From positions 1 through 32,070 of the forward strand of contig NZ_RAVZ01000072.1 of NCBI RefSeq assembly GCF_003611635.1: a stretch of DNA of 32,070 nt. The letters run 5' to 3'. The notes beneath the pieces are model-generated. The model searched no databases. It worked only from the letters and a program-made list of their open reading frames with translations, and was not told where the DNA came from. This stretch comes from Corallococcus terminator (GTDB taxonomy: Bacteria; Myxococcota; Myxococcia; Myxococcales; Myxococcaceae). Position numbers and translations under genes: made by a program. Positions 1 through 32,070 of this stretch are shown piece after piece (the first letter of the stretch is position 1; every line of letters begins with the position of its first letter).

Positions 1-2048
1 GGCTCCTGCCGCACTTCCTCGCGCACAAGGCACAGGCTGTGCCCGTCCAGCAGCAGCAGGAGTTGCCCCACGGAGATGTCGAAGTTGAGCGGCGCGTTGA
101 GGCTGGCCCGAAGGACGCGCGGCACCGAGGCCAGGGGCACATCCGCCATGGCACGGTGCAAGTGGACGATGGAGCGGTGCTGCACCATCACGCCCTTGGG
201 CATGCCCGTGGAGCCGGACGTGTAGAGGACGTAGGCCACGTTCTCCGGCCGCACCTCCACGCGCGGGTTGCCCGGAGACAACGCGTCGATGCGCCGGGCC
301 TCCGTGTCCAGCCGCACCAGGTGACGCACCGCCGGCTGCCACGCTCCAGCCAAAGCCTGGGTGGTGAGGAGCACGGTGGCCCCGCTGTTCTCCAGGATGA
401 AGTCCTTGCGTGCTTCGGGGGCTGACGGGTCCAGCGGCACGTAGGCGCCGCCCGCCTTCAGAATGCCCAGCAGCGCGACAATCGCCTCCGGCGAGCGCTC
501 CAGGCTGAACGCTACCGGCACGTCGGGGCCTACGCCCAACGTGCGCAGGTAGTGGGCCAGTTGGTTGGCGCGCACGTTGAGCTGATGGAAGGACACCGTC
601 GTCTCTCCCATCACCAGGGCCGGAGCCTTGGGCGTGCGCGTCACCTGCTGCTCGAAGCGCGTATGGAAGGGCACGTCGGCCGGGAAGTCGGCCGTCTCGC
701 CGCTCCACTCCTCCAGCACCCACTGGCGCTCATCCGCCGACAGCAGGGGCAGCGTCTCCACGCCAGCGTCCGGCTGCGTGACGGCGCCCTCCAGCAACTG
801 CACCAGGTGCTCCGTCAACCTCCGGGCCGTGGCCGCCTCGAAGAGGTCCGTGCTGTAGAAGAGCGCCCCCTCGAAGCCCCCCGCCGTGCGGCCCAGGCTC
901 AAGTCCAAGTCAAACTTCGTCGCGTTCGCCTCCACCTTCACCGGCCGCAGCGTGAGCTCCGGCAGGCGCGCGTCCGAATCCGGCGTGTTCTGGAGCACGA
1001 ACTGGGCCTGGACGAGCGGCGTGCGCGACAAGTCTCGCGCGGGCTGGAGGGCTTCCACCAGCCGCTCGAACGGGATGTCCTGGTGCTCGTACGCGCCCAG
1101 CGTGTTGGCGCGCACCTGCGCCAGCACCTGACGGAACGAAGGCCGAGCGTCGAAGCGGGCGCGCAGCACCAACGTGTTGACGAAGAAGCCGATGAGGCCC
1201 TCCGTCTCCGCGTGACGCCGGCCCGCGATGGACGTGCCCACCAGGAGGTCGTCCTGACCGGAGCAGCGGTACAGCAGCGTCTGGAAGGCCGACAGCAGCA
1301 CCATGAAGGGTGTGGCACCCTCGCGCTGGGCCAGCGCTTCCACCGCCTCGCTCAGGGCCGGGGGGATGCTCACCGGGAGCATGGCACCCCGGGCGGAGCG
1401 CTGCGGCGGACGGGGCTTGTCGGTGGGCAAGGTCAACGCTTGAGGTGCACCGGCCAGTTGCTGCTTCCACCAGCCAAGCTGCGCCTCCAGCGCATCACCC
1501 TGGAGCCAGCCGCGTTGCCAGACAGCGTAGTCCGCGTACTGCACCGGCAGCGGAGGCAGCGGAGACGGCAGCCCCTGACGGAAGGCCTCATAGAGGGCGA
1601 CGACTTCCCGCACCAGCACGCCGATGGACCAACCGTCGCCAATGCTGTGGTGGAGGCACAGGAGCAGCACGTGCTCGGCCGCGTCGAGCTTCAGCAGGGT
1701 GAGCCGCACCAGCGGTCCCGCGGCCAAATCGAAGGGACGCAGGGCGTCCTCGGTCGCGAGTCGGAGCACTTCGGCCTCGCGCGCGCCCTGGGGCAGCGGG
1801 GTGAGGTCCACCACGAACAGGCTTTGCGCCGGGGCGGGGTGGATGCGCTGAAGGGGCTCACCGTCGTGGGACTCGAACGAGGTGCGCAGGGATTCGTGCC
1901 GTTGGACCAGCGCATCGAAGGCCCGCTGGAGGTGCGGCACGTCCACCGTGCCTGACAGGCGCAGCGCGGTGGGCATGTTGTACAGCGGGCTGCCCGGGTC
2001 CAACTGATCGATGAACCACAACCGCTGCTGAGCGAAGGACAGCGGATG
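1..2048 (-). other. NRPS module 10 (incomplete): C10 and first part of A10
   Basis: C10 (about 2048-725) opens with LSFAQQRLWFIDQLDPGS and has HHSIGDGWS, an intact condensation active site. It is less alike to the other C domains than they are to one another. A10 starts near 690 and is cut by the window edge. It retains the early motifs, the A3 loop YTSGSTGMPKG (about 190-225), HRSIVHLHRA and NFDISVGQL near 70. Only three pocket residues can be read: Asp235, Ile236 and Gly239. Ile at 236 in place of Ala or Gly sets A10 apart from A7 and A9, although its surrounding sequence is of their family, so another substrate is likely. Its carrier and anything after it, including the chain-releasing domain, lie beyond position 1. 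Confidence 0.92.

Positions 2049-32070: not shown

What the first reader, a model, noticed from the sequence alone, without database searches (positions are those of the whole stretch)
1..32070. A single reading frame fills the whole window: at least 10,689 residues of one NRPS chain
In the coding frame no stop was found, and NRPS motifs stay in that frame at every landmark from 31953 to 3. All PCP-C linkers are continuous, with no place for a gene boundary. One-protein NRPSs of this size are known (kolossin synthetase of Photorhabdus has about 15 modules, and myxobacteria carry other giant ones) but are rare. Both ends are open, so the full protein is larger still.
Basis: seen in the sequence. 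Interest (0 to 1): 0.72.

Follow-up and report, generated by a model that had tools for sequence, protein, structure and literature searches.

The report
Fragment of giant myxobacterial peptide synthetase
The whole window is an inner piece of one very large enzyme gene from a soil predator, Corallococcus, that builds a peptide step by step; such one-gene giants turn out to be common in its family, and this genome holds several near-copies of it.

Summary
Observation confirmed. Minus strand 32069..3 is one open frame of 10,689 codons, far beyond shuffled controls, under purifying selection along its length. It encodes nine complete NRPS modules plus C and part of A of a tenth, with one E domain. 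The window is a whole contig of a Corallococcus draft genome; both ends are assembly breaks. Orthologues show the gene running on: upstream into KS-AT-ACP-C-A(luciferase-like monooxygenase), downstream into PCP, thioesterase and a stop. A complete relative is one frame of 14,988 aa. By homology the full protein is about 15,400-17,700 aa (inference). "Rare" is not supported: at least 53 frames of 10,000 aa or more lie in 32 of 96 family genomes. Best reading: fragment of a one-gene lipopeptide synthetase of myxoprincomide type (by architecture), with internal module duplications (3/4/5; 6-7/8-9). More interesting than size: the genome holds at least three such paralogues plus a shorter fourth, and relatives carry tandem giant genes of 31-37 kb. 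Weak points: this strain's contigs do not join, repeats allow mis-joins, and one orthologous contig (a MAG) is split into two frames.

The parts
3..32069 (-). single open reading frame, 10,689 codons, open at both contig ends; internal to 3' part of a giant NRPS(-PKS) gene
32048..32070 (.). perfect 23-nt inverted copy of 32005-32027 at the contig tip; probable fold-back end artefact, so the first ~7 codons are doubtful
27849..31982 (-). module 1: C 30654-31982, A 29556-30593, PCP 28884-29066, E 27849-28775 (limits of the HMM matches)
   Evidence: (own HMMs)
24321..27413 (-). module 2: C 26088-27413 (after E), A 24993-26030, PCP 24321-24509
21153..24260 (-). module 3 (C-A-PCP), near-copy of modules 4 and 5 (88% and 93% aa)
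17985..21092 (-). module 4 (C-A-PCP), 88% and 86% aa to modules 3 and 5
14817..17924 (-). module 5 (C-A-PCP), 93% aa to module 3
11628..14741 (-). module 6 (C-A-PCP), 85% aa to module 8
8463..11567 (-). module 7 (C-A-PCP), 83% aa to module 9
5274..8387 (-). module 8 (C-A-PCP), duplicate of module 6
2109..5213 (-). module 9 (C-A-PCP), duplicate of module 7
3..2045 (-). module 10, cut by the contig end: C 714-2045, A 3-653 (partial); the orthologue G009:C796 adds the rest of A, PCP and thioesterase
1..127 (.). 127 bp identical to the end of contig C171 of the same genome, where both contigs stop: an assembly repeat break
2434..2560 (.). 127 bp identical to the end of paralogous contig C857: a place where a mis-join between paralogues is possible

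Best explanation
The window is an inner-to-3' fragment of one giant gene in a Corallococcus genome. By homology the gene encodes a complete one-protein lipopeptide assembly line: FAAL starter, C-A-PCP modules, one KS-AT-ACP polyketide module, a C-A didomain interrupted by a luciferase-like monooxygenase, then the modules seen here, then the end of the terminal module with a thioesterase. Mechanism: each A domain loads an amino acid on its PCP, each C domain adds it to the growing chain, the E domain of module 1 makes that residue D, and the thioesterase releases the chain. It is of the myxoprincomide type by architecture and is one of at least three near-copies, plus a shorter fourth, in this genome. 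Shown: open frame, domain order, paralogues, orthologue extensions. Inferred: full length about 15,400-17,700 aa, lipid start, product release, tandem placement in this strain.
For: Open frame and domains. Even GC3 (0.88-0.94 in 11 of 11 bins) and dN/dS 0.12-0.47 in 14 of 14 bins. The C. sicarius contig (G009:C796, length 75,384 as in NZ_RAWG01000009.1) carries the orthologue to its end: A-PCP-thioesterase then stop. The C. praedator contig (G008:C574) spans the window's upstream break in one frame. In the same genome the upstream pieces C275 and C353 are open frames that end within about six residues of where the window's trustworthy sequence begins; C275 carries C, A, PCP, KS, AT, ACP, C and monooxygenase. 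G011:C44 holds a complete single frame of 14,988 aa, FAAL to thioesterase. A BGC with 66% similarity to myxoprincomide is reported in C. coralloides (PMC10609524, passages), and the myxoprincomide BGC is given as the single locus mxan_3779 (PMC11619377, passages).
Against: No contig of this genome joins the window to its upstream or downstream parts. Exact repeats up to 235 bp inside and up to 422 bp with C171 leave room for mis-joins between paralogues; the extra module relative to the C. sicarius orthologue (10 against 9) could be real or an assembly effect. The orthologous contig of the MAG genome G012 (C171) is split into two overlapping frames of 2,631 and 2,957 aa, and the second tandem copy in G013 into 3,009 and 9,512 aa: sequencing errors or real breaks, not resolved. 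PMC12224551 (passages) does not list myxoprincomide among the characterised clusters conserved in Corallococcus. MXAN_3779 itself was not available under its name. Whether C275, C353 or neither is this gene's upstream part is open.
Confidence: 0.85

Rival explanations
1. The single frame is partly an assembly product: modules of three or four near-identical paralogous genes were joined into one contig, so module number and order are not those of any real gene.
For: Exact internal repeats up to 235 bp (modules 3 vs 5), exact matches to C171 up to 422 bp, and C857 ending on a 127-bp word inside the window. Identity to C171 is 86-97% per 500-bp bin up to the last 2 kb and 97-100% there.
Against: Orthologous frames in other assemblies have the same order of module types. 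C857 shows collinear modules, three M3-like ones included, except that its module 2 is not the window's (no match of 70% or more). Single-contig genomes show the same kind of giant frame (G003 12,273 and 11,854 aa, G014 12,349 aa).
Confidence: 0.15
2. The gene is a separate NRPS gene that starts just upstream of module 1, as part of a multi-gene cluster, not one giant gene.
For: The window's own contig stops at that linker; no start was seen.
Against: In G008:C574, G010:C12 and G011:C44 the same junction lies inside one frame. C275 and C353 of the same genome are open frames running up to the junction.
Confidence: 0.05
3. A decaying pseudogene that happens to lack stops.
For: Expression was not tested; no product is known.
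Against: Core motifs are present in nine of nine complete modules; variants are HHAVSDAW in the first C domain and YSTGD for YRTGD in modules 6 and 8. dN/dS is 0.12-0.47 in 14 of 14 bins.
Confidence: 0.03

Closest known systems
Myxoprincomide synthetase of Myxococcus xanthus (MXAN_3779)
   Same: Single-locus giant NRPS/PKS in the same bacterial family; myxoprincomide-like clusters are reported for Corallococcus coralloides (PMC10609524, passages) and, in one survey, for all strains outside class Polyangiia but one (PMC10435759, passages). A 14,284-aa frame in a family member (G065) has the order FAAL-(CAT)5-KS-AT-ACP-C-A-LLM-A-(CAT)5-TE.
   Different: The Corallococcus genes looked at have E domains (most), other module numbers and often several copies. 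That G065's frame is MXAN_3779 rests on recalled size only; no residue-level comparison with the named protein was made.
Kolossin synthetase (Photorhabdus)
   Different: Other phylum; no PKS, FAAL or monooxygenase recalled; sequence not compared here.
Giant 11,633-aa frame of the same genome, G000:C111 84244-119142
   Same: Complete single frame with KS-AT-ACP and C-A-LLM-A segment and a thioesterase region.
   Different: Starts with C-A-PCP-E rather than FAAL, other module order; 70% identical to the G008 orthologue in the ACP-to-monooxygenase segment.

Membership tests
Modular type I NRPS | repeated C-A-PCP modules with core motifs in one frame | tested here: met
Modular type I NRPS | chain release domain (thioesterase) | tested here: inconclusive
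   outside the window; present at the end of the orthologue G009:C796 and of paralogue C543:32073-34172, 91% to it
Myxoprincomide-type single-gene NRPS-PKS | whole assembly line in one gene | tested here: inconclusive
   not spanned in this strain; FAAL-to-thioesterase frames in G001, G003 (two), G011, G014, G017 (two), G064, G065, G079
Myxoprincomide-type single-gene NRPS-PKS | PKS module followed by C-A with luciferase-like monooxygenase insert | tested here: inconclusive
   not in the window; found in orthologue G008:C574 and in own-genome contigs C275, C353, C268, not joined to the window; that this defines the myxoprincomide type is my inference from relatives, not read in a paper
Myxoprincomide-type single-gene NRPS-PKS | sequence relationship to MXAN_3779 by name | not testable with these tools
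   no named M. xanthus sequence at hand; the genomes searched are unnamed
Myxoprincomide-type single-gene NRPS-PKS | makes myxoprincomide or congeners | not testable with these tools
   needs metabolite data
Kolossin synthetase | sequence homology beyond general NRPS | not tested
   no comparison made

The most novel reading that the evidence does not exclude
Whole giant synthetase genes (31-37 kb seen complete, up to about 53 kb inferred) have been duplicated in tandem more than once, giving arrays of two to four self-contained one-protein lipopeptide assembly lines. These then diverge by gain and loss of single modules or two-module blocks and exchange 3' sequence with one another: a natural machine for making peptide variants.
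Probability: 0.5. Interest if true: 0.55.

Novelty: new member of a known kind. Interest (0 to 1): 0.35.

Why it matters
It corrects the size argument: giant one-gene synthetases are frequent in Myxococcaceae, so length alone is no reason for surprise. What would matter is the set of near-identical paralogues with different module counts in one genome. They are a natural series for asking how NRPS modules are added, lost and homogenised without breaking the line, a practical question in NRPS engineering. They may also explain why short-read assemblies of this genus break at these genes.

Tried and rejected
Wrong-frame translations came from my coordinate slip and were discarded; searches replaced them. 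One search failed on the same kind of slip. I looked for contigs that join the window by exact end overlaps: among the contigs compared, the only shared end is 127 bp with C171, so no join could be made. C275's end and the window's start meet in a GC-rich linker with only a few bases in common; I did not treat this as a join. An A-domain substrate reading by eye from pocket residues (positions recalled) on segments printed gave no safe amino acids without a reference set and is left out. Tandem order in this strain: C543 has the 3' end of one copy followed by the shorter gene, but which copy the window belongs to stays open. G008 and G009 disagree on which paralogue precedes the shorter gene, which may be assembly error. 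A second tree, of 24 terminal modules, was built with the first; it carries long-branch warnings (nine long rows, one doubtful join) and I draw nothing from its deep forks. In the domain strings the letter F inside modules is a weak cross-match of my FAAL model to A domains (scores 16-34), not a FAAL. Papers: eight searches. In the listings and abstract starts I saw no description of tandem giant paralogues, but most subscription journals are not held, the 2012 myxoprincomide paper is not held, and I read no supplements.

Full report
Check of the observation. The minus-strand frame 32069..3 is open for 10,689 codons without a stop and runs off both ends. Chance does not do this: the longest open run in 50 mononucleotide shuffles is 605 codons (mean 397), and 20 codon shuffles reach at most 2,670 codons in non-coding frames. 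GC at third codon positions is 0.88-0.94 in all 11 bins of up to 3 kb, so there is one coding frame with no sign of a shift.

What it encodes. Pfam over three pieces finds 10 AMP-binding, 9 PP-binding and 13 Condensation stretches; two C domains are cut by my piece boundaries and counted twice, leaving 10 C and 1 E. Own HMMs give C-A-T-E, C-A-T, then seven C-A-T, then C and part of A. Module comparison shows module 3 at 93% to module 5 and 88% to module 4, module 4 to module 5 at 86%, module 6 to 8 at 85%, module 7 to 9 at 83%. So single modules and a two-module block have been duplicated inside the gene, or appear so in this assembly.

Where it lies. The window is the whole of contig C699 in a 10.35-Mb, 863-contig genome. 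The best named matches to its E domain are C. sicarius CA040B and a Myxococcaceae MAG (both 93%) and C. praedator CA031B (86%), of 6 loci found. These are listed as the same genus as the window's genome, which is therefore taken as Corallococcus.

Why the contig ends where it does. The last 127 bp at the window's left end equal the end of contig C171, and both contigs stop there. The right tip is a perfect 23-nt inverted repeat with a 20-nt loop; its outer arm has no counterpart in the orthologue that spans the site, so about seven codons are doubtful. Contig C857 ends on a 127-bp word inside the window, and exact matches to C171 reach 422 bp. Mis-joins between paralogues are therefore possible; joins between homologous modules would stay in frame.

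How the gene continues. Downstream, orthologue G009:C796 44602-75384 has nine modules on its contig and ends with A, PCP and thioesterase. Upstream, G008:C574 is one frame from AT-ACP through C-A-monooxygenase-A into the window's first module. NCBIfam calls the insert the MupA/Atu3671 luciferase-like monooxygenase family (TIGR04020), and Pfam finds no PCP between it and the next C. In the window's own genome C275 and C353 (both 92% to that segment) end within about six residues of where the window's trustworthy sequence begins, and C268 (87%) is a third such piece. C275 carries C, A, PCP, KS, AT, ACP, C and monooxygenase. The likely 5' end of such a gene is C519, 95% to the FAAL start of G011 over 367 residues, behind an Hsp70 gene. 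There are about 6,365-6,398 aa before the corresponding C domain in G010 and G011 and about 4,140 in the shorter paralogue C543. About 636 aa are missing at the end. The full protein would then be roughly 15,400-17,700 aa. That is inference.

Results against one frame. Not every relative shows it. The orthologous contig of the MAG G012 is split into overlapping frames of 2,631 and 2,957 aa, and the second tandem copy of G013 into 3,009 and 9,512 aa. I could not tell errors from real breaks.

Constraint. Nei-Gojobori estimates give dN/dS 0.12-0.47 in 10 of 10 bins against paralogue C857 (9,853 aligned codons) and 0.15-0.30 in 4 of 4 bins against the first part of the C. sicarius orthologue (4,102 aligned codons). 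The highest values against C857 (0.42-0.47) lie in the first 3,000 codons; there module 2 differs between the two genes, so the alignment is least sure in the third bin.

How common. Using a FAAL query and the E region over 96 family genomes, I count 53 distinct frames of at least 10,000 aa in 32 genomes: 36 and 17 more. Both lists were cut, so this is a lower bound; frames are counted stop to stop, and some, like the window's, are open at a contig end. The longest listed is 17,748 aa (G079). The same genome also has a complete 11,633-aa frame on C111, not in that count.

Paralogues and tandem genes. The genome has three starts of the module-1 type (C699, C857, C263; C263 86% and C857 81% to the window's module 1), three matching upstream pieces (C275, C353, C268) and a shorter complete relative in C543 (10,246 aa). 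A mixed culture could also give several copies, but the genome is rated 99.99% complete and 1.99% contaminated. In C543 a thioesterase end of one copy is followed by the shorter gene. Single-contig genomes show tandem pairs: G003 12,273 and 11,854 aa; G013 10,403 aa beside the split copy; and, in another genus, G017 12,241 and 12,236 aa with the same architecture and 94% identity in the C-A-monooxygenase segment. In the tree of that segment (23 rows) the G017 pair groups together (100/100). The G003 and G013 pairs with G001 and G014 form one clade of six rows (100/100). The shorter genes of G000, G008, G009 and G010 form another (100/100), and C275, C353 and C268 fall with G008:C574, G010:C12 and G011 (100/100). 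This fits more than one tandem duplication, although gene conversion could also draw copies together. G003 is probably C. coralloides DSM 2259, judged by its length of 10,080,619 bp (recalled).

Comparison with what is known. Myxoprincomide is made from the locus mxan_3779 in M. xanthus (PMC11619377, passages). A cluster with 66% similarity is reported in C. coralloides DSM 2259 (PMC10609524, passages). [quoted passage not shown] Another lists myxoprincomide as conserved in Myxococcus and Pyxidicoccus but not among the characterised clusters conserved in Corallococcus (PMC12224551, passages), which speaks against a simple equation. I file the window as a new member of the known kind of one-gene giant NRPS-PKS lines, and call it myxoprincomide-type by architecture only.

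Verdict. Its stated reason for interest, size and rarity, is ordinary for this family. The paralogous, module-varying tandem giants are the part worth following.

Noticed in passing
L062:13691-17953 (G008:C574), also L112 (G000:C275): Upstream of the window's gene a C-A didomain has its A domain split by a luciferase-like monooxygenase, with only the ends of the A domain matched and no PCP before the next C domain.
   Followed up: partly
G000:C111:84244-119142 (L026, L027): A complete 11,633-aa NRPS-PKS frame in the same genome, with a related KS-AT-ACP and C-A-monooxygenase-A segment.
   Followed up: partly
G017:C1:5476763-5550347 (L154, L137-L140): Two complete giant genes of 12,236 and 12,241 aa with the same architecture lie head to tail, about 155 nt between frames, in another genus of the family.
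   Followed up: yes
G013:C1:6902583-6940066 (L075-L077); G012:C171 (L061): Giant genes read as two overlapping frames (3,009 and 9,512 aa; 2,631 and 2,957 aa): frameshift or sequencing error.
   Followed up: no
G000:C543:1064-31801 (L018, L019) and G008:C1381:32408-63148: The shorter paralogue ends C-PCP-thioesterase: its last module seems to lack an A domain, while the counterpart in G009:C796 has one.
   Followed up: no
L159 (G000:C519): An Hsp70 gene lies directly upstream of the FAAL start of this gene family.
   Followed up: no
L031 (G000:C216), L030 (G000:C416): Other NRPS contigs of the same genome show overlapping frames on one strand, possible indels.
   Followed up: no
window 32005-32070: Perfect 23-nt inverted repeat at the contig tip, probably a fold-back artefact of short-read assembly.
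   Followed up: yes
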